Source: Meiothermus sp. (GTDB lineage Bacteria > Deinococcota > Deinococci > Deinococcales > Thermaceae). Taken from it: DNA of 64,000 nt. Positions 1 through 14,331 of the stretch are shown here, in pieces (the stretch's first letter is position 1; each line of letters begins with the position of its first letter). A model generated the notes under the pieces. The model was not told the DNA's origin. It ran no database searches and saw only the letters and a list, made by a program, of their open reading frames with translations. A program made the position numbers and the translations under genes. The stretch lies in NCBI RefSeq assembly GCF_026004075.1, contig NZ_BPIK01000002.1:558001-622000 (forward strand). Reading direction: 5' to 3'.

Positions 1-853
1 TGATGGCTTTGCGCACCCGCACATCATCAAAGGGCTTTTTGGCCTGGTTGAAGTAGAAGAAGATGGTGCGCACGCTCGGGGTGTTGACCACCTCGATCTC
101 GGGGCGGGCGCTCAGGCGCTGCACGTCCTGGGGTGGCACCCGCACGGCCACATGGGCCTGCCCGGTCTCGACCAGGGCCATCCGGGTGGTGGCCTCCGGT
201 ACGGCCAGGAAGCGCAGGCGCTCGATAGCCGGCTTTTTGCCCCAGTACTCCTCGTTGCGCACCAGCTCCACAAACTGACCCTTCTGCCAGCGGTCGAACT
301 TGTAGGGGCCGGTGCCCACCGGGTTGTCGCGGTAGCCTGTGCCCAAGCGGCGGATGGCGGCTGGACTCTGAATGGCGGTGGAGCCATGCGAGAGGTGCGC
401 CAGCACCGGGGCAAAGGGCTCGGGCATGCGCAGGCGCAGGGTGTGGCTGTCCACCACTTCGAAAGCGCTAACCCGACCGCGTAGCAAGAAGGCAAACGAG
501 GAGGCCAGCTCGGGGGAGATCAGTCGCTCGAGGTTGAACTTTACGGCTTCGGCGTTGAAATCGGTGCCGTCGTGGAATTTGATGCCTTTGCGAAGGAACA
601 GGGTTAGCGTTTTACGGTCGCTGCTAAAGCTATAGCGCTCGACCAGCAGGGGCACAATTTTGCCGTCGGGGGTGTACTCAAACAGGGTCTCCACCACATG
701 GCTCACCACCGTGCCGGAAGGCGAGTCGGTGGCCAGGGGGGCATCCAGCGAGGTGGGGTCGGTGCCCTGGGCAATTATCAGGGTGCGGGTCTGGGCCAGG
801 GCCCAGGATAACAAGAGAACCAACCCTAAGGTGAGCCAGAACCGGATTCGCAT
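1..853 (-). CDS. Peptide/nickel-type ABC transporter substrate-binding protein (5' part only)
   Basis: The gene runs off the left edge, so only about the first 284 residues are present. The product is a periplasmic solute-binding protein of the SBP_bac_5 (DppA/OppA) family, which delivers oligopeptides or similar solutes to an ABC permease. A signal peptide ends near ALAQ, then TLIIAQGTDPTSLDAPL and a region with KFHDGTDFNAEAVKFNLER, which is typical of this family. The ATG at 853 is chosen because AGGAGG lies 7 nt upstream; an ATG at 859 is too close to that site. It is divergent from the YkvA gene. Family assignment is secure, substrate is not. Confidence 0.9.
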   Translation of the reverse strand, partial: MRIRFWLTLGLVLLLSWALAQTRTLIIAQGTDPTSLDAPLATDSPSGTVVSHVVETLFEYTPDGKIVPLLVERYSFSSDRKTLTLFLRKGIKFHDGTDFNAEAVKFNLERLISPELASSFAFLLRGRVSAFEVVDSHTLRLRMPEPFAPVLAHLSHGSTAIQSPAAIRRLGTGYRDNPVGTGPYKFDRWQKGQFVELVRNEEYWGKKPAIERLRFLAVPEATTRMALVETGQAHVAVRVPPQDVQRLSARPEIEVVNTPSVRTIFFYFNQAKKPFDDVRVRKAI

Positions 854-1079
854 GTTCATTCCTCCTTTACAGTCGCTGCCTGCAACATCGGCCCACAGGA
901 CTCAGCAAGGTTCCAAAGAAAGGGAACTGTTCTGGCATCCGAGCTGCAGGTAAACGCTGCTTGTAAGACGAGGTTAGCATAAGGAAAAGAGGGGGCCCGA
1001 TCTTGCAGCTTGGCTTACATTCTTAAGCCCAGCTCATCCATCCGGTCGAGGTGTTGCTACCATTTAGAGGAGGGGTTTT

Positions 1080-1457
1080 ATGGGAGAACTACAGCAGATC
1101 GAGGCCGTGCCCATCCAACCCACTGAGCGCTACAGCGAGGCCGCCTTCTGGCGCAAGCTGCGCAGGTTTGCCCGCAAAGCAGGCCGCGAGGTGGTGGAAA
1201 AAGCGCTCTGGCTGTACTACACCCTAAAGCGCCCGGAGACCCCGGCCTGGGCCAAGCGCACCATTGTGGGGGCGCTGGCTTACTTCCTTCTGCCCTTCGA
1301 TCTGGTGGCCGATCTGGCCCCGCTGGTGGGCTTTACCGACGATTTGAGCGTTCTGCTAGCGGCCATCGCTACGGTAGCCGCCCACATTACCCCTGCGATT
1401 AAGGAACAGGCCCGGCGCAAGGCGGATGAGTGGTTTGGCGAGCCGTCGCCCAGCTAG
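1080..1457 (+). CDS. YkvA family (DUF1232) small membrane protein
   Basis: A 125-residue protein with the DUF1232/YkvA core in its second half (about residues 55-120): a hydrophobic segment around GALAYFLLPFDLVADLAP followed by a short acidic turn (GFTDD) and a second hydrophobic stretch. The family is widespread and its function is not established. AGGAGG stands 8 nt before the ATG. The last four bases overlap the convergent GNAT gene. The first 50 residues are charged and probably cytoplasmic. Confidence 0.8.
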   Translation: MGELQQIEAVPIQPTERYSEAAFWRKLRRFARKAGREVVEKALWLYYTLKRPETPAWAKRTIVGALAYFLLPFDLVADLAPLVGFTDDLSVLLAAIATVAAHITPAIKEQARRKADEWFGEPSPS

Positions 1458-1999
1458 CCATAAGCCCCGGGCCAGGGGCCGGGGGTTTGGTCGGGGATCT
1501 CCATTAGCCTGGTCTCGGTTTTGTAGAGCTGCATCCCCCGGGCCTGGTAGTTGGCCAGGGCGGCTGGGCTATCGAGTGAGCAGGTATGCACCCAGACCCT
1601 TTGGGCCCCCAGCCGCCAGGCTTCCTCGAGCGCACAGGTTAGCAAGTGGCCCCCCAGCCCCATCCCGCTAAACTGCGGCAGCAAGCCAAAATAAACAATT
1701 TCTATGTTTCCCTCTGGCTGCACCTCGAGCTGAAAGTAACCCGCTGGCGTACCTTTTAGCAGCAGCACCCAGGTGTGCAGGTGGGGGTTCTGGGCGTACT
1801 CGAGCCACTGCTGATACGTCCAGTCGGCCTTTTCGTACCAGTACCAGTTGCCGCCCACGCTGCGGTAGAGGAAGTGCTGCAACTCGGCGCTGGGAATTTC
1901 GGCTTTGATAAGCTGCAACCCCTCTATCTCAAGGTGCTTAGGGCGTAGCTCATGGGGGGAGCGCATCTCGAGGTAGTAGGTGGTGACCTCCTTCTGCAT
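1454..1999 (-). CDS. GNAT family N-acetyltransferase
   Basis: A 181-residue acyl-CoA-dependent acetyltransferase. The acetyl-CoA binding motif A region is visible at about residues 104-120 (GLLPQFSGMGLGGHLL), preceded by the beta-strand IEIVYF. The N-terminal half is rich in Trp and Tyr (NWYWYEKADWTYQQW), probably the substrate side. The start lies 4 nt after the cupin stop codon without a clear ribosome binding site, suggesting translational coupling at the end of the liv transcript. Substrate cannot be told from sequence. Confidence 0.85.
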   Translation of the reverse strand: MQKEVTTYYLEMRSPHELRPKHLEIEGLQLIKAEIPSAELQHFLYRSVGGNWYWYEKADWTYQQWLEYAQNPHLHTWVLLLKGTPAGYFQLEVQPEGNIEIVYFGLLPQFSGMGLGGHLLTCALEEAWRLGAQRVWVHTCSLDSPAALANYQARGMQLYKTETRLMEIPDQTPGPWPGAYG

Positions 2000-2003
2000 G
2001 GGA

Positions 2004-2348
2004 CTATTTTTGGGCCTCGAGCCGCTCGAGCAAGTCCTGCCGCACCGGGTGAAAGGCGTCGAACACCACGCTATCCTCGAGGAAGAGCACCTCGTGCTCC
2101 ACGCTGGAGGGGATGTGCACCAGGTCGCCCGCGCCGAGCTCGAGCCACTCCTCCCCGACCCGCATCCGCAGCCGCCCCGAGACCACCAGGGTGATCTGTT
2201 CGTGGGGGTGGGTGTGAGCGGCCAGAGGTGAGCCTGCTTTCCCCTCGGCCCGCATGAGCATCAGTTGCTCACCAGCAAAGGGCCGTAGCACCGCGCCGGG
2301 CACCTCGAGGCCCTTCAGGTTGGCGGACTGGGCGTATTTGGTTTTCAT
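2004..2348 (-). CDS. Cupin domain protein
   Basis: A 114-residue single-domain cupin. Metal-binding cupin motif 1 is visible as HTHPHEQITLVVSGRLRMRV at about residues 45-65, and motif 2 as GDLVHIPSSVEHEV at about 78-92. Small cupins of this kind are isomerases, oxygenases or sensors; none can be picked here. It starts 17 nt after the livF stop and probably shares its transcript. Confidence 0.85.
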   Translation of the reverse strand: MKTKYAQSANLKGLEVPGAVLRPFAGEQLMLMRAEGKAGSPLAAHTHPHEQITLVVSGRLRMRVGEEWLELGAGDLVHIPSSVEHEVLFLEDSVVFDAFHPVRQDLLERLEAQK

Positions 2349-2364
2349 GACCCGCTCCAGAAAA

Positions 2365-3078
2365 CTAGTGCCCGCCCAGATAGGCTTCCTGAATCTCGGG
2401 CCGGGTCGCCAGCTCTTTAGCCGGGCCGCTCATGGTGAGTTGGCCGGTCTGTAGCACATAGCCCCGATGGGCAATTTGCAAGGCCAGGCGGGCGTTTTGT
2501 TCTACCAGCAGAATGGTTTTTCCCTGCTGATTGAGCTTCTGGATAATCTCGAAGATAAAATCCACCAGCACCGGGGCCAGGCCCATCGAGGGCTCGTCCA
2601 TCAGCAGAAGCTTGGGGTCTTGCATCAAAGCACGGCCAATCGCCAGCATCTGCTGCTCGCCGCCCGAAAGCGTGCCCCCTTTCTGGTTGCGGCGCTCGGC
2701 CAGGCGGGGGAAGAGGGTAAAGGCCTGCTCCTTGCGCTCCTGCACCACTTTGGGGTCGCGGATGAGAAAGCCGCCCATCTCGAGGTTCTCCTCCACCGTC
2801 ATGCGTGGGAAGATGCGCCGCCCCTCGGGTACGTGCCCAATGCCCAGCCCCACAATCTTATCGGCAGGCAGCTTGTGGATGGGGTTGCCCCGGTACACCA
2901 CCTCGCCCTTGCGGGGCTTGTTCATCCCGCTGATGGTGCGCAGGGTGGTGCTCTTGCCCGCGCCGTTGGCGCCAATCAGGGTCACAATCTCGCCCTCCTC
3001 AACCGTGAGCGAGACGCCCTTAAGTGCGTGAATGTGGCCGTAGTAGGTGTGGATGTCCTTGACTTCAAGCAGAGGCAT
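2365..3078 (-). CDS. livF: Branched-chain amino acid ABC transporter ATP-binding protein LivF
   Basis: One of two cytoplasmic ATPases that power uptake of leucine, isoleucine and valine with LivH/LivM. Walker A (GANGAGKST) and the signature LSGGEQQMLAIGRALM are intact, followed by LLMDEPSMGLAP. The length of 237 residues is usual for LivF. The frame is open upstream to 3129, but the ATG at 3078 (MPLLEVKDIH) is preceded by GGAGGGGG and matches family N-termini. Its start overlaps the end of livG by 14 nt. It is the last transporter gene of the livHMGF operon. Confidence 0.95.
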   Translation of the reverse strand: MPLLEVKDIHTYYGHIHALKGVSLTVEEGEIVTLIGANGAGKSTTLRTISGMNKPRKGEVVYRGNPIHKLPADKIVGLGIGHVPEGRRIFPRMTVEENLEMGGFLIRDPKVVQERKEQAFTLFPRLAERRNQKGGTLSGGEQQMLAIGRALMQDPKLLLMDEPSMGLAPVLVDFIFEIIQKLNQQGKTILLVEQNARLALQIAHRGYVLQTGQLTMSGPAKELATRPEIQEAYLGGH

Positions 3079-3871
3079 GGGTACCCCCTCCAGCCTGCCC
3101 GGCGGCGCCTTTGCCCAGATAGGCTTCAATCACCTTGGGGTTGTTGCGGATCTCAGCCGGCAGCCCCTCGGCAATCTTGGAGCCGTACTCGAGCACCGCA
3201 ATCCGATCCGAGATGCTCATCACCATGGCCATATCGTGCTCGATCAGCACGATGGTCAGGCCCAGGTCGTCGCGCAGCTTGCGTACGCGCACCTTGAGGT
3301 CTTCGGTCTCTTGCTCGTTCATGCCGGCTGCCGGCTCGTCCAGAAACAGCAGCTTGGGTTCCAGGGCCAGGGCCCGGGCGATCTCGAGGCGACGCTGCTC
3401 CCCATACGAAAGCCCCGAGGCCAGCTCCTCGGCCCGCTTGTCCAGGTTCATGTAGGCCAGCAGCTCCATGGCCCGCTCTTTTGCCTTGCGCTCCGAGGTA
3501 TGGAATCGCGGCGTATGCAACAGCACGTCCAGGTAGCTCTGATGGGTGAGGCTGTGGTGCCCTACCAGTACGTTTTCCAGTACGGTCATAGCCTTGAACA
3601 GCCGGATGTTCTGGAAGGTGCGACCAATGCCGGTGCGGGCTACCTTATCCGGGGAGTAGCCGGTAATGTCTTTGCCAAAGAACACCACCTTGCCGGTGTC
3701 GGGCTTGTAAATTCCGGTCAGTAGGTTGAAAAAGGTGGTCTTGCCAGCCCCGTTGGGGCCAATCACCGAGAAGATTTCTCTGGGGCGTACCTGTAGGCTT
3801 ACGTCGTTGACCGCCACCAAGCCGCCAAACTTTTTGGTGGCGTTTTGTACGTCTAGGGCGAGTTCGCTCAT
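3065..3871 (-). CDS. livG: Branched-chain amino acid ABC transporter ATP-binding protein LivG
   Basis: The second cytoplasmic ATPase of the LIV-type importer, 268 residues. Walker A (GPNGAGKTTFFN) lies near residue 38, the signature LSYGEQRRLEIARALA near 155, and Walker B LLFLDEPAAGMNEQE near 175. LivG proteins carry a characteristic loop after Walker A (FGKDITGYSPDKVARTGIGR), present here. The start overlaps the livM stop by 4 nt (ATGA), a sign of translational coupling. Confidence 0.95.
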   Translation of the reverse strand: MSELALDVQNATKKFGGLVAVNDVSLQVRPREIFSVIGPNGAGKTTFFNLLTGIYKPDTGKVVFFGKDITGYSPDKVARTGIGRTFQNIRLFKAMTVLENVLVGHHSLTHQSYLDVLLHTPRFHTSERKAKERAMELLAYMNLDKRAEELASGLSYGEQRRLEIARALALEPKLLFLDEPAAGMNEQETEDLKVRVRKLRDDLGLTIVLIEHDMAMVMSISDRIAVLEYGSKIAEGLPAEIRNNPKVIEAYLGKGAAGQAGGGTHASA

Positions 3872-5301
3872 TTGCCACCGCCTTCCTTGGCTTCCTGACG
3901 GGCTTCCTGTAGCTCGGCCCGGTGTCTTTGCTCGGGTATAAGCCCCTCGGGCCTGAAGATCATCATCAGAATCAGAATCAATCCGAAGACCAGGCGCTCA
4001 TACTTAGCAGGGTTGAGCTGGGGTGGCAGGTTGGCCATGTTGTAGCCCAGAATGGTCACTCCAGTCTGCCGCCAGGTATTCAAGAGGTCGGAGAAATCCT
4101 TGAGGATACCGATGTTGAGCACCGTGACCGCTGCCGCGCCCACCACCGCCCCGCCAATAGAACCCATGCCGCCTAGAATCACGAAGGCCAGGATATTAAT
4201 AGAGGCTTGCAGGGTAAAAGACTCAGGGCTCACGAAGGTTTGCTTAGCGGCGAACACTGCTCCCATAGCGCCGGAAAAAGCTGCGCCGGTAGCAAAAGCC
4301 AGGAGTTTGGTGGGCAGCAGTGGAATGCCCATGGCCTTGGCGGCAATCTCGTCTTCACGGATGGCTACCCAGGCCCGTCCGAAGCGGGAGTTAGCCAGCC
4401 GGATGTTGACGAGCACCACGATGCCGATCACCACCAGCACCAACAGATAGAAGAAGAACGAATAGGCGATGGGCTCGTCGATTGGGCGACCATACAGGCG
4501 CTCGGCCCCAATGGCCCGCAGGAACTCGGTGAGTGGGCCCACATCGGGGCGGTTGACCGGGGTGATGCCCTGGGGGCCGTTGGTGATGTTGAGGGGTTTG
4601 TCGAGGTTGTTGGCGAAGACCCGCACCACCTCGCCGAGGCCCAGGGTCACGATGGCCAGATAGTCGCCCCGCAGCCGCAGGGCTGGTAGGCCAATCAAGA
4701 CCCCGGTAATGGCCGCCGTAATAACGGCCAGGGCCATGAACAGGTACAGGTAGTTGCCTGGTAAGCCCTCCGCAGGGTAACCGGGGATGAACTGGGCGGC
4801 TTGCGGCGAGCCGAAAATACCCCAGGTATAGGCCCCAATGGCGAAAAAAGCCGCAAAACCCAGATCCAATAGCCCAGCCTGCCCGACCACCACATTGAGA
4901 CCCAGGGCCAGCGCCGCAAAAATCCCGATCTGGATGCCCAGCTCAAACAGGAAGGAGTTGGTAAGACCCGCAATGGGTACGGCAATAAACAGGATGGCCA
5001 GGGCCAAAGCAATGCGCACCAGCTTGCTCAGGTTGGGCAGCAAGAAGGCTGCCACCAGTACCCCCAACAGGCCATAAAAGGCCAGTTTGTCGTTGGGGTT
5101 AAGCCGTAGCAAGATGGTGAGCGCCAGGGCCAGCACGGCTAGGAGACCCGAGCGCCAGGCAGTAGGTAGCTTACCCAAACTGACCAAGCCCACCGATACC
5201 AGCAAGGCCAGGTTGGTCAGTCCGTTTTGTGGCGCTAAAAAGGCCCCGAGAATCGAAAGGGCCGTGAAGGCCAGGGTGAAAGGAAAGATGAACTGATTCA
5301 T
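3868..5301 (-). CDS. livM: Branched-chain amino acid ABC transporter permease LivM
   Basis: A 477-residue inner-membrane permease. The conserved LivM core begins near residue 130 (GLNVVVGQAGLLDLGFAAFF) and includes the cytoplasmic coupling region with GRAWVAIREDEIAAKAMGI and the late helix ILGGMGSIGG. About 120 extra residues at the N terminus form additional hydrophobic segments, making this longer than many LivM proteins. Start and stop overlap neighbouring operon genes by 4 nt. Confidence 0.93.
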   Translation of the reverse strand: MNQFIFPFTLAFTALSILGAFLAPQNGLTNLALLVSVGLVSLGKLPTAWRSGLLAVLALALTILLRLNPNDKLAFYGLLGVLVAAFLLPNLSKLVRIALALAILFIAVPIAGLTNSFLFELGIQIGIFAALALGLNVVVGQAGLLDLGFAAFFAIGAYTWGIFGSPQAAQFIPGYPAEGLPGNYLYLFMALAVITAAITGVLIGLPALRLRGDYLAIVTLGLGEVVRVFANNLDKPLNITNGPQGITPVNRPDVGPLTEFLRAIGAERLYGRPIDEPIAYSFFFYLLVLVVIGIVVLVNIRLANSRFGRAWVAIREDEIAAKAMGIPLLPTKLLAFATGAAFSGAMGAVFAAKQTFVSPESFTLQASINILAFVILGGMGSIGGAVVGAAAVTVLNIGILKDFSDLLNTWRQTGVTILGYNMANLPPQLNPAKYERLVFGLILILMMIFRPEGLIPEQRHRAELQEARQEAKEGGGK

Positions 5302-6278
5302 ACCTTTTCACTCACATTCTGACCAAAGATGCCTTGCGGTCTGAAGAGCAAGAGTAGCACCAGGGTGAGAAAAGCGAACACATCCTTGTACTCCGTGCCA
5401 AAGTTGCCGTTGGTTAGGAAGGGGAGGTAGGTACCTGAGAGGGTCTCGAGCTGGCCCAGAATGAGCCCCCCGACCATGGCCCCCGGAATGTTCCCGATGC
5501 CCCCCAGCACCGCCGAAGTAAAGGCTTTGAGGCCTGGCAGCACCCCCGAGTAAGGGGTTACATTGGTGTAGAGCAGCCCGAACAACACCCCGGCCACCCC
5601 ACCCAGCGAACCTCCAACCAGGAAGGTGCGCGAGATGATGGTGTCGGGGTTGATGCCCATCAGGGCGGCGGTTTGCATATCCTGTGAGACGGCCCGAATG
5701 GCCTTCCCGAGCTTGGTGCGATTCACCAGGTAGGTGAGCCCAATCAGCATCAGGATGGAAACCACAATAACGATAACGCCCTTGAACTGAATGGTGGTTT
5801 GTAGGGGCAGTTCAAACACCTGGTTGAGCACGTCGTAGGTGCGGTACTGCATATTGAACTCGTTGTGCCTTAGCGCAGCGTAGATACGGGTCAGGTCTTG
5901 CAACAAGAACGAGACCCCGATGGCGGTGATCATGGGCACCAGGATGTTTTTACTGCCCCGTTTGCGCAGAGGCCGGTATGCGAAACGCTCGACCAGCACA
6001 GCCACAATGCCCGAGCCTGCCGCGGCGAAGACCAGGGCTACCAGCAACAGCAACAAGGGATTGGCGATTACCGGCGCTTCGGGGTTGCCCCAGAAGCGGA
6101 AGACCTCGAGGCCGACCACCGCCCCAATCATGAACACTTCGGAGTGGGCAAAATTAATCAGCCCCAACACCCCATACACCATGGTGTACCCCAGGGCCAC
6201 CATAGCGTACACAAACCCCAACAGCAAACCCTCGAGCAGGGTTTGCGGCAGGATGGCAAACAGATCTGCAACCGTCAA
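5298..6278 (-). CDS. livH: Branched-chain amino acid ABC transporter permease LivH
   Basis: The partner inner-membrane permease, about 326 residues, with family landmarks GYTMVYGVLGLINFAHSEVF near the N terminus, AVSQDMQTAALMGIN in the coupling loop, and AFTSAVLGGIGNIPGA late. A TTG codon at 6278 is chosen as start: AGGAGG sits 5 nt before it and the protein then begins with the usual short leader before DLFAILPQ. A GTG at 6314 would add 12 residues but has no ribosome binding site. First gene of livHMGF; a strong promoter lies about 90 nt upstream. Confidence 0.93.
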   Translation of the reverse strand: MTVADLFAILPQTLLEGLLLGFVYAMVALGYTMVYGVLGLINFAHSEVFMIGAVVGLEVFRFWGNPEAPVIANPLLLLLVALVFAAAGSGIVAVLVERFAYRPLRKRGSKNILVPMITAIGVSFLLQDLTRIYAALRHNEFNMQYRTYDVLNQVFELPLQTTIQFKGVIVIVVSILMLIGLTYLVNRTKLGKAIRAVSQDMQTAALMGINPDTIISRTFLVGGSLGGVAGVLFGLLYTNVTPYSGVLPGLKAFTSAVLGGIGNIPGAMVGGLILGQLETLSGTYLPFLTNGNFGTEYKDVFAFLTLVLLLLFRPQGIFGQNVSEKV

Positions 6279-6364
6279 GTAAACCTCCTGGTCTTTAGGA
6301 TTATACGAACGCACATATAGGGTTCATTTAGGGTATGCGTTCTTTTTCAGCGTTAACCTGCCAG

Positions 6365-6393
6365 AGTATATAGGCTGCACGCAAACCTGACAA
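6365..6393 (-). promoter_or_regulatory. Sigma-70 type promoter of livHMGF
   Basis: Reading on the minus strand, TTGTCA and TATACT are separated by exactly 17 nt, close to the consensus. It lies 87 nt upstream of the TTG start of livH. A second TATAAT at 6300-6305 has no good -35 element and would give a very short leader. Confidence 0.7.
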
Positions 6394-6420
6394 CAGTATG
6401 AAATGGCGTCTGCAAAAGGC

Positions 6421-6442
6421 AAACTGACCCAATGGTCAGTTT
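6421..6442. promoter_or_regulatory. Perfect inverted repeat, candidate operator upstream of livH
   Basis: AAACTGACC and GGTCAGTTT form perfect 9-bp arms around the spacer CAAT. The size and TGACC/GGTCA half-sites resemble operators of TetR-family dimers. It is centred about 38 bp upstream of the livH -35 element and abuts the 137-bp repeat. No regulator gene of that family is in the window, so the ligand and protein are unknown. Confidence 0.55.
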
Positions 6443-6443
6443 G

Positions 6444-6580
6444 ATACCGCTTCCGCTTGAACGCTTCACCTTTGGGTGTCATCAAAGGTGAGGGGTTCAA
6501 GCCGATCGAAGGGAGTAGAAAAGCATTTCGGTAGTATCGTTTAGGCTTGCCGAAGTGAACGATACTGCCGGAATGCGTAT
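6444..6580 (+). repeat. 137-bp dispersed hairpin repeat, copy A
   Basis: One of five copies in this window (with 9482, 40553, 42742 and 60245). It starts ATACCGCTTCCG and ends CGGAATGCGTAT, imperfect terminal inverted repeats. Inside are two long hairpins: a 19-bp stem with arms starting CTTGAAC and ending GTTCAAG, and a 19-bp stem with arms GCATTTCGG and CCGGAATGC around a roughly 16-nt loop. Located between livK and livHMGF. Confidence 0.85.
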
Positions 6581-6589
6581 GACGTAGAC

Positions 6590-6626
6590 CAAATAGTAAG
6601 AAAGGCTCCCGCGTACGCGGGAGCCT
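6590..6626 (-). terminator. Intrinsic terminator after livK
   Basis: A perfect 24-nt palindrome (6603-6626, arms AGGCTCCCGC and GCGGGAGCCT) followed on the minus strand by a U-rich stretch TTTCTTACTATTT. It lies 16 nt after the livK stop and would separate livK from livHMGF, letting the binding protein be made in excess. Confidence 0.85.
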
Positions 6627-6642
6627 CAGGCAAACGCAAAGC

Positions 6643-7803
6643 TTACTGGCGGGCAGCAGGGGGTGCGAACTGAATCACGCGCAGCACTTCGCCAGGATAT
6701 TTGGCTTCCTTCATGCCAACAATGTAATAGTCAGAGAGCTTGCGGTCGCCCTTGCTGTCGAACTCGATACGGCCGGTCAGACCATCTAGCTTGACTTCAC
6801 GTACGGCACGGGCCACTTGCTCGCGGGTGGGTTTACGGCCGTTGTTGGCTTTAATGGCGGCCTCGAGGGCAGTCAGGATCACGTTGGCGGCGTCATAGGC
6901 GTACACCGCATAGGCTTCAGGGTCTTTGCCGAACTTGGCTTTGTAGCGCTGTGCAAAAGCCGCGGCCTTGGGCAGGGTGCTGATGGGGCCGGCAGTGGTG
7001 GTAAAGATTACACCCTTGGAGGCCGAGCCAGCAATTTTGACCAGGTCGGAGGCATCCAGACCATCGCCGCCCATGAAGGTAGCGGTAATGCCGCGCTCAC
7101 GCATCTGCTTGACCAGGACGCCGCCCTTGTCGTAGATGCCACCGTAGTAGACCAGGTCGGGGCGCTGGGCGCGCATCTGAAGGATAAGGGGTTGGAAGTT
7201 GGAGGCTTCCTCGGTACCTACCAGGGCAACCACATTGGCGCCCAGCTCTTTGGCGCGGGCCGCGAAGGCTTCAGCAAGGCCCTGGCCGTAGGGGGTTTTG
7301 TCGTGAATCACGAACAGCCGGTTGCGCTTGAGCACCTTAACGGCGTACTCAGCACCCACCGGGCCCTGTACATCGTCGCGACCGCAGATGCGGTTAACGC
7401 TCAGGTAGCCACGGTCGGTCACACGGGGGTTGGTGTTGGCCGGGGAGACCATGACCAGGTTGGTGTCTTTGTAGATCTCCGAAGCCGGGATAGCCACGCC
7501 CGAGTTGAGGTGGCCCACAATGCCCAGCAGATCGGGATCGTTGACGATACGACGGGCGACCGCTACGCCCACGTCCGGAGTAGCCTGGTCATCCTGGGGG
7601 CTGAACTGGAGCTGGAAGCCAAGCTGCTGGAAGCGGGCTTGAGCATCCTCGATGGCCATCTGAGCACCTTGCTGGATGGCGGTGCCCAGACCCGACTGGG
7701 GCCCGGACAGGGGTGAGACCGAAGCGATCTTGATCACGTTGGACTGGGCCGAGGCTACACCCAGAGCCAATGCGCCCAGTGCTAGAATTGCGAGCTTTTT
7801 CAT
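6643..7803 (-). CDS. livK: Branched-chain amino acid ABC transporter substrate-binding protein LivK
   Basis: A 386-residue periplasmic binding protein (type I fold, Peripla_BP_6). The signal peptide MKKLAILALGALALGVASA is followed by the mature start QSNVIKIASVSPLSGPQSG, typical of LIV-binding proteins. Other landmarks: NPRVTDRGYLSVNRICGRDD and DKTPYGQGLAEAF. GGAGGAAT stands before the ATG. It is upstream of livHMGF in the same direction, separated by a terminator and a repeat, so it can be expressed more strongly than the membrane genes. Confidence 0.95.
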   Translation of the reverse strand: MKKLAILALGALALGVASAQSNVIKIASVSPLSGPQSGLGTAIQQGAQMAIEDAQARFQQLGFQLQFSPQDDQATPDVGVAVARRIVNDPDLLGIVGHLNSGVAIPASEIYKDTNLVMVSPANTNPRVTDRGYLSVNRICGRDDVQGPVGAEYAVKVLKRNRLFVIHDKTPYGQGLAEAFAARAKELGANVVALVGTEEASNFQPLILQMRAQRPDLVYYGGIYDKGGVLVKQMRERGITATFMGGDGLDASDLVKIAGSASKGVIFTTTAGPISTLPKAAAFAQRYKAKFGKDPEAYAVYAYDAANVILTALEAAIKANNGRKPTREQVARAVREVKLDGLTGRIEFDSKGDRKLSDYYIVGMKEAKYPGEVLRVIQFAPPAARQ

Positions 7804-7851
7804 GCCGATTCCTCCTAAAGAACCAAAAGTTTAGCCTTAGATGGCTGGCCT

Positions 7852-7882
7852 ATTCTACCCAACCCATGCCGTGGTGTGTCAA
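7852..7882 (-). promoter_or_regulatory. Probable livK promoter
   Basis: On the minus strand TTGACA (7877-7882) and TAGAAT (7852-7857) are separated by 19 nt; both hexamers are near consensus but the spacer is long. The leader to the ATG would be about 40 nt. Confidence 0.45.
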
Positions 7883-8085
7883 TCTGGGTGGTTTTATTGT
7901 TTTCCAGCCATTTTGAGCGTACACAATTTTAGTTAATCTTCAACCAGCGTTCCGGAGCTGCTAAGCTTCCTTATTGCAGATAGCTGCGCGGATATCCAGG
8001 CCACCAATCCGCCTTTTGATGGAGCGACATCGGCTGAAATTACGACGGCACAGAAGCCAGCTGGCCAGGCCGCATTGAAGGCTGG

Positions 8086-9447
8086 CTAGTACTCGGCCAG
8101 GTACTGGTCGAGCTCCCATTGATGAACGGCGATTCGGTAGGAGTTCCACTCTACCTGCTTGGCATGGAGGAAGTCTTTGTATATCTGTTCGCCTAATGCC
8201 GCCCGAATGACCCGGTTCTTTTGCAGGGCCTCGAGGGCCTCGTGCAGGGTTCCGGGCATCTCGCTTACGCGGTACTTGCGCCGGTCGCGCACCGAAAGCT
8301 CGTATACGTCGCGCTCAATGGGCGGTGGGGGGGTTAGGTTGCTCTCGATACCCTCGAGGCCCGCCCCCAGGATTACCGCCAGGGCCAGGTAGGGGTTGCA
8401 GGAGGGGTCGGGGAAGCGAAACTCGGCCCGGGTGCCTGTGCCGCGCCGCTTGGGCACCCGAATCATGGCGCTGCGGTGCGAGACCGACCAGGCCACACTG
8501 GTGGGGGCTTCGTAGCCAGGGGTCAGGCGCTTGTAGGAGTTGACCAGCGGGTTGGTGATGGCGGCCATGCCCTCGGCGTGCTCGAAGAGGCCGGCGATAA
8601 ATTGCAGCGCAGTTTTGGAAAGCTGGTGGGGCCAGACCTCGAGCTTCCCCTTTGGCTCATAAAAGGCATTCTCGCCATTTTTGAAGAGCGACAGATGGAA
8701 ATGCAAGCCCGAACCGTTAATGCCGGCAATGGGCTTGGGCATAAAGGTGGCATGCAGCCCATGGTTGATGGCAATTCGCTTGACCACAAATTTGAGGGTG
8801 GTTAGGTTGTCGGCCGCCTGCAGGGCATCGGTGTACTTGAGGTCTATCTCGTGCTGGCCGGGAGCGCCTTCGTGGTGGGCGGCCTCGAGCTGCAAACCCA
8901 TCCGCACCAGCATGTCCACCATATCCCGGCGGGCCTCCTCGCCTTTGTCGGTGGGGGCCAGGTCGAAGTAACCGGCCCGGTCGTAGGTATGAATGGTGGG
9001 GCCACCCTCCGGGCTGCGGTTGAACAAAAAGAACTCCACCTCGCTACCCACATAAAGGTTGTCGAAGCCCTTTTTCTGGGCCCGCTCGATCTGCCGCTTG
9101 AGCGCCTGCCGGGGGTCGCCCTCAAAGGGTTTGCCATCGGGGTAGGCGATATCGCAGATGAGACGGGCCACCGCCCCTTTGGTGGTGGGCTCGAGGTCGC
9201 TGGGGTAGACCACAAAGGTGTTGTAGTCGGGCTTTAGCAACATGTCCGACTCTTCCACCTCGGTACGACCAAAGCCCTCAATGGAGGAGCCATCGAACAT
9301 AATTTCGCCGTCCAGTGCTTTCTCGAACTGAGTAACCGGCAGCTCGACTACCTTGTTGATGCCCAGGATATCGGTGAACTGTAAACGCAGGAAGCGCACC
9401 TGGCGGTCTTTGAGCTCCTGCAATAGGTCTTGCTTGGTCCGTGCCAT
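8086..9447 (-). CDS. glnA: Glutamine synthetase type I
   Basis: ATP-dependent ligation of ammonia to glutamate, a dodecameric cytoplasmic enzyme. At 453 residues it has the size of the GSI-alpha class. Landmarks: FDGSSIEGF near residue 50, ammonia/glutamate-site GINGSGLHFHLS near 245, NSYKRLTPGYEAP near 305, and PKRRGTGTRAEFRFPD. The C-terminal region (PPPPIERDVYELS) lacks an obvious adenylylation tyrosine loop as found in longer GSI-beta enzymes. No ribosome binding site: TATGCT at 9454-9459 lies 6 nt before the ATG, indicating a leaderless transcript. Followed by 280 nt without a gene (7804-8085). Confidence 0.95.
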   Translation of the reverse strand: MARTKQDLLQELKDRQVRFLRLQFTDILGINKVVELPVTQFEKALDGEIMFDGSSIEGFGRTEVEESDMLLKPDYNTFVVYPSDLEPTTKGAVARLICDIAYPDGKPFEGDPRQALKRQIERAQKKGFDNLYVGSEVEFFLFNRSPEGGPTIHTYDRAGYFDLAPTDKGEEARRDMVDMLVRMGLQLEAAHHEGAPGQHEIDLKYTDALQAADNLTTLKFVVKRIAINHGLHATFMPKPIAGINGSGLHFHLSLFKNGENAFYEPKGKLEVWPHQLSKTALQFIAGLFEHAEGMAAITNPLVNSYKRLTPGYEAPTSVAWSVSHRSAMIRVPKRRGTGTRAEFRFPDPSCNPYLALAVILGAGLEGIESNLTPPPPIERDVYELSVRDRRKYRVSEMPGTLHEALEALQKNRVIRAALGEQIYKDFLHAKQVEWNSYRIAVHQWELDQYLAEY

Positions 9448-9481
9448 ATATACAGCATACCGGTTGTGGCGACCGCCTTTG

Positions 9482-9617
9482 ATACCGGTTCCGCCCGAAC
9501 CTCTTACCTTTGGGTGTAATCAAAGGTGAGGGGTTCAAGCCGACCGAAGAAAGTAGGCGTACATTCCAACAGTTCGTTCAGGCTCTCAAAAGTGAGCGAT
9601 ATTGCCGGAATGCGTAT
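9482..9617 (+). repeat. 137-bp dispersed hairpin repeat, copy B
   Basis: The most diverged copy, 136 bp. The outer ends ATACCGGTTCCGC and CGGAATGCGTAT and the first hairpin core TTACCTTTG ... CAAAGGTGA are kept; the left arm of the second hairpin has changed. It lies between the glnA and outer-membrane protein promoters. Confidence 0.8.
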
Positions 9618-9741
9618 GAGCGACTCGCCCGCACAAACGAACCCCATTGCATTAAGGAAATTTGCAACCCCTCTCAGTTATGGGGCGTACCCAGCCCCTA
9701 TGATTGGGCCGTTTGTGGCGCACGAGCCACCCGGAGGAATC

Positions 9742-10491
9742 ATGAAAAAAACTTTGCTAGCAGTCTTGGCTTCGTTGGGTATAGGAGGGGCCGCAATGGC
9801 CGACGGCTTTTCCATCACGGGAAACCTGCAATTCCTGCCCGAGTTTGGCTTGGTAGGCGGGCAGTTCACAACCCCTTACCGTAGCTACCGGGGTACTGCA
9901 CTGAACTACACCTTCAACCTGACCGATAACATCGTGGCCGGAGCCAGCCTGCGCCCAGGTTTTTTTGCCGGACAGTTTGTGCTGGCCAGCCGGGCCGGGC
10001 TGGTGGGGGTTGCCAAGCTGAACGAGTCCAGTAGCGGCTATGTGGAAGGGGCCGTTCGTTTTGGCTCCAACCAGGTCATTCTGCCCGGCCCCTTTAGTTT
10101 CGACTTTGACGCAGGTGCGGAAATTTTTATTACCCAGCGCGTGGCCGATGCGGCGGTGCTGTATGGGGGGGCGGGCCTGGACGCCACCCTGGTGGTGGTG
10201 CCATCGGTATCGCTAAACGCTGCAGCCAACGCCTATGCCGGTTTGAAGCTGGAACTCACCCGCGACCTCAATGCCTACCTGGAGGGCGGCCTTCGCTACC
10301 CCTTTGGCCTGAGCCTGGGCTACGATGTGACCGCTTCGCTGTACTACACCGTTTTGCGTGGGCTGCGGCTGGGGGTCTATGGGGGCTACGCCAACGCCAG
10401 TGGCGCGGCGGGTGCCTGGAAGCTGGGCATTGCGGGTGAGTGGACAGAAAAACCCGAGACCCTGGGTACGCCCGGTAACTACCTGCCCTGA
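9742..10491 (+). CDS. Probable outer-membrane beta-barrel protein
   Basis: A 249-residue protein with a signal peptide (MKKTLLAVLASLGIGGAAMA) and then alternating hydrophobic/polar strands rich in Gly, Tyr and Ala (for example GGAGLDATLVVVPSVSLNAA and LRGLRLGVYGGYANASG), which suggests a small beta-barrel. I do not recognise a named family. GGAGG stands 4 nt before the ATG at 9742; the frame is open further upstream into repeat B but that part is not coding-like. A terminator follows at once. Confidence 0.75.
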   Translation: MKKTLLAVLASLGIGGAAMADGFSITGNLQFLPEFGLVGGQFTTPYRSYRGTALNYTFNLTDNIVAGASLRPGFFAGQFVLASRAGLVGVAKLNESSSGYVEGAVRFGSNQVILPGPFSFDFDAGAEIFITQRVADAAVLYGGAGLDATLVVVPSVSLNAAANAYAGLKLELTRDLNAYLEGGLRYPFGLSLGYDVTASLYYTVLRGLRLGVYGGYANASGAAGAWKLGIAGEWTEKPETLGTPGNYLP

Positions 10492-10510
10492 GCTTGGATG
10501 AAGCAAGTTT

Positions 10511-10535
10511 GCCTCCCTTACGGGAGGCTTTTTTT
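10511..10535 (+). terminator. Intrinsic terminator between convergent genes
   Basis: Stem GCCTCCC/GGGAGGC with loop TTAC followed by seven T. It serves the gene ending at 10491 and overlaps the stop codon of the convergent sugar dehydrogenase gene. Confidence 0.9.
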
Positions 10536-11637
10536 AGCGCTGGGTCATTCGATAGATCGTACCGCGGTGATCTATCACATACAGCTCACCCTCAGCATCT
10601 TCGCCAAAAGAACTGATGTTTAGATCGGTTTTAAGCACCTCCCGGCTCTGCCAGCCGCTGCCCTGAGGGGTAGCAGCCCAGATGCGACCGCTTACGTAGT
10701 CGGCATAAAAGTAAGCCCCACGAAAGGCTGGCATGGCGTTGCCGCGGTAGCGGTAGCCCCCGGTGATGGAGCGGCCCTGGTCGTGGGTGTAGGTCAGCAC
10801 GGGCATTACCAGACCGTTGCGGTCGCAGTTTTGTGGGGGGTTGAAGCACCGATTCCCCTCCATAATGCGCCAGCCATAGTTCTCACCGCCTTTGCTGTTA
10901 GCAGGTTGAAAGTGTACCTCCTCCACGGCGTTTTGTCCGACATCTGCGACCCACAGGTCGCCGGTCTGACGATCGAAGCTGAACCGCCAGGGGTTGCGCC
11001 AACCATACGACCAGATCTCGCTGCGACGACCGGCCAGAACAGGGTTGTCAGCGGGGATAGCATAAGGCCGGTTGCCCTCGCTACGGTTCACATCTATGCG
11101 CAGGATCTTACCCAGCAGAGTGTCGAGCCGCTGGCCGGCGTTGAGGGGGTCGCCGGCCGCGCCCCCATCGCCCATACCGATGTACAGCATGCCGTCCGGG
11201 CCAAAAGCGATCATGCCGCCGTTGTGGTTGGCATAGGGCTGCTCGATGGTGAGCAGGATCTGGGCTGATCCTGTCTCGGTGCGGTTGCCGTTTGCGCGGT
11301 AGCGGGCAATTACGGTATCGCCGTTGCGGTTGGTGTAGTTGATAAAGAACAAATTGTTCTGGCGAAAATTGGGATGGAAGGCCAGTCCCAAGAGACCCCG
11401 TTCACCGCAACAGGAAACCAGGTTGCTTATGTCTAAGAATGGCTCTGCAAGCAGCCGCCCGTTTTGCCAGATGCGGATGGTACCGCCTTGCTCGAGGATA
11501 AAAAGCCGCCCGGTATTGTCTGGGGAATAGGTGAGGAACAGCGGGCGGCTCAGGTTGTTGGCGATTGGAACCAGGTTAATAGATTGCGCGGAAGCCAGGC
11601 CGAACCACACCAGAGCAAAGCAAACAATCTGTCGCAT
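10534..11637 (-). CDS. PQQ-dependent sugar dehydrogenase family protein (copy 1)
   Basis: A 367-residue exported protein of the soluble glucose/aldose sugar dehydrogenase (GSDH, YliI-like) beta-propeller family, which oxidises aldoses with PQQ. The signal peptide ends at SAQS. Landmarks: GLLGLAFHPNF, FINYTNRNGDTVIARY, NHNGGMIAFGPDGMLYIGM, YGWRNPWRFSFDRQTGDLW and GGENYGWRIMEG. A paralogue lies immediately upstream (11720-12901) in the same direction. PQQ supply genes are not in the window, so cofactor use is inferred from the family. Confidence 0.9.
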   Translation of the reverse strand: MRQIVCFALVWFGLASAQSINLVPIANNLSRPLFLTYSPDNTGRLFILEQGGTIRIWQNGRLLAEPFLDISNLVSCCGERGLLGLAFHPNFRQNNLFFINYTNRNGDTVIARYRANGNRTETGSAQILLTIEQPYANHNGGMIAFGPDGMLYIGMGDGGAAGDPLNAGQRLDTLLGKILRIDVNRSEGNRPYAIPADNPVLAGRRSEIWSYGWRNPWRFSFDRQTGDLWVADVGQNAVEEVHFQPANSKGGENYGWRIMEGNRCFNPPQNCDRNGLVMPVLTYTHDQGRSITGGYRYRGNAMPAFRGAYFYADYVSGRIWAATPQGSGWQSREVLKTDLNISSFGEDAEGELYVIDHRGTIYRMTQR

Positions 11638-11719
11638 AAACGCAGTGTAGCCAGGCTTTTTCTGAGGTCGGTGTGTGCAGGCTACAGGTTGACTCGCCAG
11701 GTTTGGTGCGGGGTCTGTT

Positions 11720-12901
11720 TTAGGGCCGATCCTCCAGCCGCCAGACCTGTCCCCCGAAAAGACTCATAACATATAGCTCCCCCTGCTCGTCTTCGCCGAA
11801 GGAAGCCAAGCCACCTCCGGCCGAGGTAATCTCGGTTTTGCGCTCCCAGGCCCCATTGACCTGGTACAGGCTCCAGAGATGGCCCGAGCCAAAGTCGGTA
11901 AAAAAATAGCGGCCTCGCATCCGGGGATAGCGTGTGCCACGGTAAACGTAACCGCCAGTCACCGAGTAGCCATCACTGCGCCCATAGACGTGCACGGGCT
12001 GGGTTAGGTTACTGCTGCCACAACCAGGGGCTATGCTGTTGTCGTAACAGTTGGTGCCTTCCATGATTTTCCAGCCGTAGTTGAGCCCCTTGCCGCCGCC
12101 CACGCCCCGGTTGACTTCTTCCTGGTTGTTCTGACCCACATCGCCGATCCAGAGATCGCCGGTCTGCCGGTCGAAGCTGGCCCGCCAGGGGTTGCGCAGT
12201 CCGTAGGCCCAGATTTCCGAAACCCGCCCGCCCAGGCTGGGGTTATCGGGGGGAATGCGATAGTTACGGCCCAGCTCGCTGCCATTAATGTCAATGCGCA
12301 AGACTTTGCCCAGCAGATGTCGATTTCCGCTCTGGGGCTCGAGGCGCTGGGCGTAGTTTTGCGGGTCACCACCTGAGCCCCCATCCCCCAGTGGAATGTA
12401 GAGCATTCCGTCGGGGCCAAAACCCAGCCAGCCAGCGTTGTGGTTGTCGTAGGGCTGGTCTACTGATAGCACCACCTGCTCAGAACTGGGGTCGACCATT
12501 TTGCTGCTGCGGTTGGCTGTGTAGCGGGCAATGACGGTATCGCCGGCGCTGTTGGTGTAGTTGACATAGATGAAGCCGTTGTTGCGGTAGTTGGGATGAA
12601 AAGCCAGGCCCAGCAAGCCCTGTTCGCCGCCTTTGGAGGTCTTTGCGGTGATGTCGAGGAAAGCTTGGGTGCGCAGGGCCCCGTTTTCGATGAGCCGAAT
12701 ACGCCCGGCTTTTTCCACTACATACAGGTTTCCGCTACCGTCGCCAGCATGGGTCAGATAAAGCGGCTGGCTCAGGCCGGAAGAGACGAGCAAGCTCAGG
12801 TGAAGCGACGGTTCACCTGAAGTGGGCGGGTCGGATGGATCGGGGGATAATCCTAGACAACCCGTACATACCGCCACCAAACTGGTTAGCCAATAGCGCA
12901 T
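11720..12901 (-). CDS. PQQ-dependent sugar dehydrogenase family protein (copy 2, possible lipoprotein)
   Basis: A 393-residue paralogue of the downstream gene, sharing GLLGLAFHPNYRNNGFIYV, WLGFGPDGMLYIPLGDGG, YGLRNPWRASFDRQTGDLW and NYGWKIMEG. The N terminus MRYWLTSLVAVCTGCLGL followed by a Pro/Ser linker looks like a signal peptide with Cys residues that could carry a lipid anchor, unlike copy 1. The ATG at 12901 is chosen because GGGAGG precedes it. An IS256-type element begins only 35 bp upstream of the start, so the native promoter has probably been displaced. Confidence 0.88.
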   Translation of the reverse strand: MRYWLTSLVAVCTGCLGLSPDPSDPPTSGEPSLHLSLLVSSGLSQPLYLTHAGDGSGNLYVVEKAGRIRLIENGALRTQAFLDITAKTSKGGEQGLLGLAFHPNYRNNGFIYVNYTNSAGDTVIARYTANRSSKMVDPSSEQVVLSVDQPYDNHNAGWLGFGPDGMLYIPLGDGGSGGDPQNYAQRLEPQSGNRHLLGKVLRIDINGSELGRNYRIPPDNPSLGGRVSEIWAYGLRNPWRASFDRQTGDLWIGDVGQNNQEEVNRGVGGGKGLNYGWKIMEGTNCYDNSIAPGCGSSNLTQPVHVYGRSDGYSVTGGYVYRGTRYPRMRGRYFFTDFGSGHLWSLYQVNGAWERKTEITSAGGGLASFGEDEQGELYVMSLFGGQVWRLEDRP

Positions 12902-12936
12902 AAAAACCTCCCTCGAGCCCAAATACAACCAACGTA

Positions 12937-14196
12937 GGGTCGTGTCAAGATTTATGTGTAGCAGTCTGTGTAGAGGGGAAGTACCGCTCCTTCAGCATCT
13001 GTTCTAGCATCTCCTTTGCCTCGGCAAAGCCTCTGAGTGTACGCTCTGTCCATTTGCCCTCCTGCCTTTCGCTCTCCAGATACAGCACTTTGAACACCGC
13101 CTCCGTTGTAGGAAACTTGTGATCCCGTACCTTGGTACTGCGTCTTATCTCCCGGATAAACCGTTCCATCGGATTGGTGCTCCGAAGGTAGGGCCACAGC
13201 ACCTTGGGATAGCCATAGAACCGCAGCAGCGCCGCGGAGTCCTCCCACCAACCGCTCACCAGCCGCGGGTACCTCGACCCCCAGGTTCGCCGCAGCCGCT
13301 CCAGGCCTTCCAGGGCTTCCTGTCGGCTTTCCGCCCGGTACACCCCGCGTAGATGCTCGGCCACCGCCCCCCGATCCCGTGCACGCACCTGTGCCAGGCT
13401 GGAGCGCACCATGTGCACCACGCAGCGCTGCCATTCGGCGCCGGGGTAGACCCTTTGGATGGCCGCCTCCATGCCGGGAAGGCCATCGGTCACGAAGAGC
13501 AAGACCCGCCGTAGGCCCCTTTGCCACAAGCCCTTCAACACCTCCTCCCAGGCCAGAGCGCTCTCTGCGGGCAGGAGCCAGAAGCCCAGCACCTGCCGCT
13601 CCCCGCTGGGGGTGATGCCCAGCGCCACATACACCGCCTCTTGCTGAACCCCCAGGTCGTCCCGCATGACCCTCAGAAACAGACCGTCCAGGTAGACCAC
13701 GGCCAGTTCCTCCGGCAAAGGCCGCTGGCGGTACTGCTCCGCCGCCCGCAAGACCTGGTCGGTCAGGCTGCTAAGGGTCTCGTGGGTATAGCGGTGCCCC
13801 AGCAACAGGCTCAGCACCTCCGCCGCTTTGCGCTGCGTCACCCCGGCGGCATACAGGGCCACGGCCACCTCCCCCACGTCCACCAGGCGCCGGGCATAAG
13901 GTTCCAGGAAGCTGGGATAGTAGCACCCCTCGCGATCCCTGGGCATCTGGAGGTTCACTGAACCAAAGCGGGTCGAAAGCCGCCTGGGGTAGTAGCCGTT
14001 TTTGCGTCCTCCGTGTTCCCGCAAGAAGGCCTCCCGGTCGGCGTCCAGCAGAATCTGCAAGACCTCGGTGGCTGTTTCCCTTACCGCTTCGCGCAAAATC
14101 ATCTGTAGGGTATCCTGATCCATGGGGTACCTCCTTGTTGATTGCGGTACCCCCTCTTTTTACACAAACCCCTACACATAATTCCTTACACGACCC
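12937..14196 (-). mobile_element. IS256-family insertion sequence
   Basis: A 1.26-kb element with imperfect terminal inverted repeats: GGGTCGTGT at the left end, and the complement of GGGTCGTGTAAGG at the right, both followed by TTATGTGTAG-like sequence. CCAACGTA occurs at 12929-12936 and again at 14195-14202, an 8-bp target duplication usual for this family (two bases of it are shared with the right end, so the exact boundary is uncertain by 2 bp). The intact duplication suggests a recent insertion. Confidence 0.9.
12945..14123 (-). CDS. IS256-family transposase
   Basis: A 392-residue mutator-type DDE transposase. The catalytic acidic residues are visible in AVVYLDGLFLRV (first Asp, about residue 145), LLFVTDGLPGM (second Asp, about 206) and the TNPMERFIREIRRSTKV region with the catalytic Glu near residue 316. 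The C(2)H signature WQRCVVHMVRSSL is also present. No frameshift is visible, so it should be active. GGAGGTAC precedes the ATG. Confidence 0.95.
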   Translation of the reverse strand: MDQDTLQMILREAVRETATEVLQILLDADREAFLREHGGRKNGYYPRRLSTRFGSVNLQMPRDREGCYYPSFLEPYARRLVDVGEVAVALYAAGVTQRKAAEVLSLLLGHRYTHETLSSLTDQVLRAAEQYRQRPLPEELAVVYLDGLFLRVMRDDLGVQQEAVYVALGITPSGERQVLGFWLLPAESALAWEEVLKGLWQRGLRRVLLFVTDGLPGMEAAIQRVYPGAEWQRCVVHMVRSSLAQVRARDRGAVAEHLRGVYRAESRQEALEGLERLRRTWGSRYPRLVSGWWEDSAALLRFYGYPKVLWPYLRSTNPMERFIREIRRSTKVRDHKFPTTEAVFKVLYLESERQEGKWTERTLRGFAEAKEMLEQMLKERYFPSTQTATHKS

Positions 14197-14331
14197 AACG
14201 TAGTGAACCGTTCTGAGGAGTGGCTGAAAATTGCCTCAACTTTTGCGGTGTATACGAGGGCAAAATGCACTGAAATGATGTTGACCTGGTGGCGGTATAG
14301 AATAGCCTTGCAATATTAGCGAGGAGGAACT

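What the first reader, a model, noticed from the sequence alone, without database searches (positions are those of the whole stretch)
1625..2309. CTCGAG is a highly iterated palindrome in this genome
Nine CTCGAG hexamers occur between 1625 and 2309, where about 0.2-0.3 would be expected from a base composition near 65 percent GC. The same density of several per kb is seen in most genes of the window. In the GNAT gene they encode Leu-Glu in frame (CTC GAG) while other Leu codons are mostly CTG. This recalls the HIP1 palindrome of cyanobacteria and may reflect a methylase, a repair bias or a chromosome-organising signal.
Basis: partly seen in the sequence, partly recalled or inferred. Interest (0 to 1): 0.6.

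Follow-up and report, generated by a model that had tools for sequence, protein, structure and literature searches.

The report
CTCGAG, a Meiothermus highly iterated palindrome
A six-letter DNA palindrome, CTCGAG, is repeated thousands of times across this Meiothermus genome and its relatives, up to about one copy every 150 bases in one uncultured family, far beyond chance and beyond anything the proteins require, so some force acting on the DNA itself (probably linked to DNA methylation) must be making or keeping these sites.

Summary
Confirmed. Nine CTCGAG occur at 1625-2309, 159 in the window (15 expected) and 7,762 in the 3.25 Mb genome. The cluster itself is only the random maximum; the real feature is genome-wide. 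Codon-pair and dipeptide nulls fail: the excess is 3.6-fold in frame, 19- and 5-fold in the other two frames, and 6-fold between genes. Sites are conserved against Meiothermus ruber (92% kept, 62% expected).

The trait spans the order. It is about 3-fold in Thermus, 10-fold in Meiothermus and 36-58-fold (6-7 per kb) in an uncultured family, where Leu-Glu dipeptides themselves are 2.4 times too common. That is denser than HIP1 in any of 97 published cyanobacteria.

All 18 Meiothermus genomes carry exactly one of two unrelated orphan adenine methyltransferases. One is a 64%-identical orphan of M.PaeR7I (CTCGAG). The other belongs to a family whose partner nucleases are XhoI relatives.

No such enzyme was found in Allomeiothermus, Marinithermus or the densest lineages, so methylation is a probable part of the mechanism, not the proven cause. 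This is a HIP-type system new to this phylum in the papers I could search. Function is unproven; no methylation data were available.

The parts
1625..2309 (.). densest local run: nine CTCGAG sites in 685 bp, all in frame as CTC GAG (Leu-Glu)
   Evidence: maximum of 341 kb, p about 0.10 under random placement
1625..1630 (.). CTCGAG
1724..1729 (.). CTCGAG
1799..1804 (.). CTCGAG
1967..1972 (.). CTCGAG
2016..2021 (.). CTCGAG
2025..2030 (.). CTCGAG
2076..2081 (.). CTCGAG
2139..2144 (.). CTCGAG
2304..2309 (.). CTCGAG
1454..1999 (-). GNAT acetyltransferase gene (181 aa) carrying four of the sites in frame
   Evidence: ORF; PF00583 E=3.1e-13
2004..2348 (-). cupin-domain gene (114 aa) carrying five of the sites in frame
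   Evidence: ORF; PF07883 E=1.1e-13
527..63806 (.). the remaining CTCGAG sites of the window (159 in all), spread at random
   Evidence: dispersion

Best explanation
CTCGAG is a highly iterated palindrome (HIP) of the Meiothermus/Thermus order. Shown: the excess is a DNA-level property of the exact hexamer, acts in all frames and between genes, keeps individual sites through divergence, and is strong enough in one lineage to enrich Leu-Glu dipeptides. Inferred: each site is created or kept independently of its neighbours, by a site-autonomous bias rather than a need for one site per stretch. Inferred: in Meiothermus and Calidithermus the site is the target of a solitary N6-adenine methyltransferase (type A in this genome, type B in the M. 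ruber group), and methylation is coupled to the bias, for example by making mismatch correction favour the strand or allele that carries the methylated site. The repair step is a guess by analogy with Elhai's model for HIP1.
For: Excess and uniqueness. Codon nulls refuted: frames 653/29/59 against 181/1.5/12 when amino acids and both codon-junction dinucleotides are kept (z = 41, 24, 14). Between genes: 58 against 9.0 expected here, 228 against 5.0 in G055. Site conservation: CTC-GAG kept 92% / 96% / 97% / 88% in four relatives (M. ruber, G021, G017, G005) against 62% / 69% / 58% / 35% expected if the two codons varied independently. Leu is CTC before GAG in 66% here (19% elsewhere) and 91% in G055 (10% elsewhere). 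Leu-Glu dipeptides are 1.45-fold here and 2.38-fold in G055 while Glu-Leu is 0.87 and 0.97. Random spacing, gap CV 1.09, variance/mean about 1. Methyltransferases: A in 14 and B in the other 4 of 18 Meiothermus genomes, never both. B is 64% identical over 97% of its length to PaeR7I methylase and nests in the clade of methylases adjacent to PaeR7I/XhoI nucleases. The A family's immediate downstream partner (found in about 60 of 80 loci) is a XhoI relative: a XhoI-family HMM hits 37 ORFs at these loci, nearly all the immediate downstream partner, and HHalign gives 94-96% probability. A and B are solitary: no such nuclease beside them and no XhoI-family nuclease in any Meiothermus genome.
Against: No A, B or C methyltransferase was found in Allomeiothermus (G001, G002), Marinithermus (G058) or the densest lineages (G050-G052, G054-G057), despite searches with A, B, C, PF00145, PF07669 and PF01555. 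Thermus mostly carries type C, a close relative of a XhoI-linked methylase, yet has only about 3-fold excess, and Thermus genomes without C are no lower. In Trueperaceae the link of A to density is absent (p = 0.31) and to the CTCGAG/GAGCTC ratio weak (p = 0.02). A-family restriction-modification hosts do not avoid CTCGAG (rank 31 of 64). No methylation data were available. Selection for a function would leave much the same sequence signature.
Confidence: 0.5

Rival explanations
1. Selection for a function: CTCGAG is read by a protein (methylase-dependent or not) that benefits from many sites, for instance in nucleoid organisation, replication timing or DNA repair, and each site carries a small advantage.
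For: Strong conservation of individual sites; persistence across genera and across a swap of methyltransferase; persistence in lineages without A, B or C. Elhai 2015 (PMC4390886) argues similarly for HIP1.
Against: Spacing is indistinguishable from random and density does not saturate, reaching one site per about 150 bp in G055/G056; an advantage at each of roughly 27,000 sites per genome, strong enough to change amino acids, is a heavy demand. No cluster at the ends of five closed chromosomes.
Confidence: 0.33
2. Codon-pair or dipeptide artefact: Leu-Glu is common and CTC-GAG is a favoured codon pair for translation.
For: Most sites are in frame as CTC GAG (653 of 741).
Against: Excess in the two other frames (19-fold and 5-fold over a codon- and junction-preserving shuffle), excess between genes, Leu-Glu but not Glu-Leu enriched.
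Confidence: 0.02
3. DNA uptake sequence of a naturally competent bacterium, enriched because taken-up DNA carries it.
For: Thermus relatives are naturally competent (own knowledge); uptake sequences are a known class of over-represented words (PMC1939737 abstract).
Against: Known uptake sequences are about 9-12 nt and not palindromic (own knowledge); here the unit is exactly six palindromic bases with no flanking extension, and density reaches 6-10/kb.
Confidence: 0.05
4. Relic of an old XhoI-type restriction-modification system whose methylase became solitary, the excess being a passive after-effect.
For: A and B are solitary members of restriction-modification families; a XhoI-family nuclease interrupted by stops/frameshift remains in G108.
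Against: Restriction normally causes avoidance, not excess: over-representation was 47 cases, 41 of them CCGG in Helicobacter, in a survey of thousands of genomes (PMC4687349).
Confidence: 0.1

Closest known systems
HIP1 (GCGATCGC) and alternate HIPs of cyanobacteria
   Same: Short palindrome far above Markov expectation through the whole genome, in genes and between genes, phylum-scale distribution, solitary methyltransferases associated with the word, exceptions that have the word but no known methyltransferase (PMC4390886).
   Different: Different phylum and word; unit is six bases with no flanking extension. Density here is 2.4/kb and 5.9-7.7/kb in the densest lineages, against 0.3-2.7/kb for HIP1 in 97 cyanobacteria. 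Methylases are gamma-type N6-adenine (M.PaeR7I type and a second family), not GATC/CGATCG enzymes.
Solitary CTCGAG methyltransferase of Nocardia
   Same: Orphan methyltransferase for the same hexamer (PMC4752239).
   Different: There the motif is reported clustered between dnaA and the DNA polymerase III gene; here sites are dispersed at random and no cluster was seen. Homology to A was not tested.
XhoI/PaeR7I restriction-modification systems; MamA/MSMEG_3214 of Mycobacterium smegmatis (REBASE-predicted CTCGAG)
   Same: Type B is a full-length relative of M.PaeR7I; the A family's partners are distant XhoI relatives. Prediction for MamA from PMC7526240.
   Different: Here the methyltransferases stand alone and the site is hugely over-represented. 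Homology of A to MamA was not tested.
CCGG excess in Helicobacter pylori
   Same: Over-represented methyltransferase site without explanation (PMC4687349).
   Different: Ratio only about 1.4-1.5 and an active restriction system; here 10-fold to 58-fold by order-1 expectation.

Membership tests
Highly iterated palindrome (HIP) as a class | Palindrome far above Markov expectation across the whole genome | tested here: met
Highly iterated palindrome (HIP) as a class | Present in coding and non-coding DNA and in all reading frames, not explained by codon usage | tested here: met
Highly iterated palindrome (HIP) as a class | Shared by a broad clade, with sites conserved | tested here: met
Highly iterated palindrome (HIP) as a class | A methyltransferase specific for the word accompanies it | tested here: inconclusive
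   A or B in 18 of 18 Meiothermus and B-type in 2 of 2 Calidithermus; none found in Allomeiothermus, Marinithermus or the densest lineages
HIP1 proper | Sequence GCGATCGC with GATC and CGATCG methyltransferases | tested here: not met
   the word is CTCGAG; CGATCG is under-represented here: 39 against 154 by Markov order 2
M.PaeR7I / M.XhoI methyltransferases (for type B) | Full-length homology including the specificity region, clustering with methylases beside XhoI-family nucleases | tested here: met
M.PaeR7I / M.XhoI methyltransferases (for type A, this genome) | Full-length homology to a CTCGAG methyltransferase | tested here: not met
   22-30% identity, mostly in the catalytic half; separate clade. 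Specificity of A rests on XhoI-related partners and on A/B exclusivity
Type A/B methyltransferases | CTCGAG methylated in the cell | not testable with these tools
   no long-read kinetic data; no methylome of Meiothermus found in the papers searched
DNA uptake sequence | Longer, non-palindromic, oriented word | tested here: not met
   exact six-base palindrome, flanks at expectation
Chi-like recombination signal | Strand-oriented word | tested here: not met
   a palindrome has no orientation
Origin-clustered methylation motif (Nocardia type) | Cluster at the replication origin | tested here: inconclusive
   at most 7 sites per 500 bp around the ends of five closed chromosomes; dnaA itself was not located

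The most novel reading that the evidence does not exclude
CTCGAG is the densest highly iterated palindrome described, driven by a site-autonomous DNA process strong enough to bend protein composition (Leu-Glu excess), and kept while the responsible methyltransferase is repeatedly replaced by unrelated enzymes of the same specificity. That would make a HIP a long-lived molecular trait of the order, independent of any single gene.
Probability: 0.35. Interest if true: 0.85.

Novelty: new variant of a known kind. Interest (0 to 1): 0.68.

Why it matters
HIP1 has been unexplained since 1995 and was known from one phylum. A second, independent case in a distant phylum, with a different word and different methyltransferases and with a gradient from no excess (G053) through 3-fold (Thermus) and 10-fold (Meiothermus) to 58-fold within one order, turns the question into a comparative one. 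The Meiothermus A/B swap tests whether methylation matters; the methylase-less dense lineages test whether it is needed. The Leu-Glu excess shows that a DNA-level process can change protein sequence proteome-wide. A practical note: XhoI sites are very frequent in this genus.

Tried and rejected
Codon-pair and dipeptide explanation: rejected. Local meaning of the 1625-2309 cluster: rejected as the expected maximum of a random scatter. Regular spacing, gene-position bias and clusters at chromosome ends: none seen. Specificity of A from avoidance of its word in hosts with an A-family restriction system: no signal (rank 31 of 64). Methyltransferase of the densest lineages: families PF00145, PF07669 and PF01555 gave no enzyme shared by all four f3 genomes; a C5 enzyme shared by G052, G054, G055 is more likely tied to their GGCC avoidance, which is my guess. 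A further solitary PF01555 enzyme ('D', beside trpA in G001/G002; weak hits of matching size in all or nearly all Meiothermus and in Calidithermus) was noticed, but its specificity could not be inferred. PF02384 and PF02086 were not searched in the dense lineages. Literature searches found no report of CTCGAG excess in this group, but only open-access papers were searched.

Full report
WHAT WAS CHECKED. The nine CTCGAG sites are at the stated coordinates and the window holds 159, against 14.7 in dinucleotide-preserving shuffles. The host genome (3,248,096 bp, two contigs; window = C2:558001-622000) holds 7,762, or 2.39/kb, against 1,139 for the reversed word. In 341 kb of this genome CTCGAG is the only palindromic hexamer with a large excess: 798 observed against 84 (order 1) and 153 (order 2). 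The unit is exactly six bases: flanking bases occur as expected. The local cluster of nine is the maximum of the 341 kb and is reached by random placement in 10% of trials. All nine sites are in frame as CTC GAG in a GNAT gene and a cupin gene.

Genes were called in the 341 kb with a simple codon-score gene finder of my own (338 genes, 85% coding). A shuffle that keeps every protein and both dinucleotides at codon junctions gives 181 / 1.5 / 12 sites in frames 0 / 1 / 2; observed are 653 / 29 / 59. The null is conservative because the codon usage it keeps is already inflated by the sites. Between genes there are 58 sites where 9.0 are expected. Leu is CTC in 66% of cases before GAG and 19% elsewhere. 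So the codon-pair explanation fails.

CONSERVATION. In about 25-34 orthologous genes per relative, CTC-GAG at conserved Leu-Glu is kept in 92% (M. ruber), 96% (G021), 97% (G017) and 88% (G005), against 62%, 69%, 58% and 35% expected if the two codons varied independently. CTCGAG is the best conserved palindromic hexamer among those frequent enough to test. These four relatives carry a different methyltransferase from this genome (below).

TAXONOMIC RANGE. G009 is M. ruber DSM 1279 (3,097,457 bp, size confirmed in PMC4671558), so the genus is Meiothermus; a Meiothermus MAG also heads the named relatives of A. The handles G001, G029, G058 and G108 I take as Allomeiothermus silvanus, a Thermus, Marinithermus and Truepera from chromosome length and place in the tree (own knowledge). 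Ratios to order-1 expectation: Meiothermus 9.5-13, A. silvanus 7.0 (its plasmid 6.6), Marinithermus 6.0, Truepera 3.3, Thermus 3.1, G050 5.1, and in two unnamed families of the same order 32-58 (G051, G052, G054, G055, G056) at about 6-11 sites/kb. The highest values, G051 and G052, come from only 8 and 14 kb of sequence, but whole-genome counts agree (7.7/kb and 6.2/kb). G053 (1.1), a Deinococcus radiodurans megaplasmid stretch (0.4) and 50 kb of Thermus phage P23-45 (0.3) show no excess. HIP1 in 97 cyanobacteria runs at 0.3-2.7/kb (PMC4390886).

THE DENSEST CASE. In G055 (340 kb, GC 45%) CTCGAG is the commonest of all hexamers, three times the next; 68% of TCGA tetramers lie within it. Excess holds in all three frames (1041 / 378 / 312 against 161 / 50 / 11) and between genes (228 against 5.0). 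Leu before GAG is CTC in 91% (10% elsewhere). Leu-Glu dipeptides are 2.38 times expectation while Glu-Leu is 0.97; in this Meiothermus 1.45 and 0.87. The odds in the three frames (97, 49, 28) and the intergenic ratio (46) are of similar size, as are those here (8.5, 38, 2.5; 6.4): a force on the word itself, blind to context.

METHYLTRANSFERASES. Type A: this genome carries a 551-aa N6-adenine methyltransferase at C2:447654-449306, outside the window, with no nuclease partner beside it. Its closest solved relatives are BseCI, CamA-type and TaqI methylases (names partly from own knowledge). Type B: M. ruber, G005, G017 and G021 lack A and carry a solitary 553-aa enzyme 64% identical over 97% to PaeR7I methylase and nested among methylases that sit beside PaeR7I/XhoI nucleases. 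A occurs in 14 and B in the other 4 of 18 Meiothermus genomes, none with both or neither; the four B genomes are the nearest relatives of this one by DNA, so the swap may have happened once. Calidithermus carries B-type enzymes. Type C, beside a XhoI nuclease in three Oceanithermus-like genomes, has 60-69% identical copies in most Thermus.

SPECIFICITY OF A. A is not a full-length relative of M.PaeR7I (22-30% identity, separate clade). But in other bacteria the A family is followed by a nuclease-like ORF in about 60 of 80 loci; a XhoI-family HMM recognises 37 ORFs at these loci, nearly all of them the downstream partner (best E 7.8e-6), and profile comparison gives 94-96% probability over the catalytic core. 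Together with the A/B exclusivity this makes CTCGAG the likely target of A; related nucleases can differ in specificity, so it is not proven.

WHERE THE METHYLASE LINK BREAKS. No A, B or C was found in Allomeiothermus, Marinithermus or the dense lineages, and surveys of PF00145, PF07669 and PF01555 there found no enzyme common to all dense genomes. Thermus with and without C have similar counts. In Trueperaceae A goes with a higher CTCGAG/GAGCTC ratio (p = 0.02) but not with density (p = 0.31). Phylogenetic non-independence was not corrected for.

MECHANISM. Random spacing (gap CV 1.09; variance/mean about 1 from 500 bp to 10 kb) and density up to one site per about 150 bp argue against a role that saturates at about one site per 1,000 nt, as Elhai's mismatch-repair model predicts for HIP1 (PMC4390886). 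I favour a site-autonomous bias coupled to methylation in Meiothermus; selection for an unknown function is the main rival. A stretch of low-GC DNA at about C2:469-477 kb, poor in sites (3 in 8 kb; chosen as the longest gap), fits gradual accumulation after acquisition.

LIMITS.

Noticed in passing
window 1-64000: GGTCC/GGACC (the AvaII word GGWCC) is almost absent: 11 against 198 expected in the window, 34 against 623 in M. ruber; not depleted in Thermus or Marinithermus. Looks like a Meiothermus restriction-avoidance trace.
   Followed up: partly
window 1-64000: CAGCTG (PvuII word) is strongly avoided: 3 sites in the window, 24 against 172 expected in 341 kb; GTCGAC is also low in most of the order and in Deinococcus MP1.
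   Followed up: no
window about 16105-16194: An intergenic repeat of about 38-90 bp has many 75-92% identical copies across Meiothermus genomes, some in tandem in G018; only one weak further copy in the 341 kb held here.
   Followed up: partly
L143-L159 (G055) and genomes G054, G056, G057: The dense uncultured family nearly lacks several palindromes: GAGCTC 4-15 per genome, TTCGAA 1 against 108 and GGCC 12 against 1,028 expected in 340 kb of G055.
   Followed up: no
L347:1324-2289 and L348:1375-2289 (G001, G002): A solitary adenine-type methyltransferase directly downstream of trpA; hits of matching size appear in nearly all Meiothermus and in Calidithermus. Specificity unknown; could be a further candidate for the mark.
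   Followed up: partly
L013:9500-17500 (C2:469500-477500): Low-GC island (about 0.50) poor in CTCGAG, with a C39 peptidase and several ORFs of unknown family.
   Followed up: partly
L083:5829-8230 (Truepera-like G108): PaeR7I-type methylase next to a XhoI-family nuclease gene interrupted by stops/frameshift, alongside a separate type A enzyme elsewhere in the same genome.
   Followed up: no
L325 (Thermus phage P23-45, 1-50000): The phage is depleted in CTCGAG (6 against 18.7 expected) while its host genus is mildly enriched.
   Followed up: no
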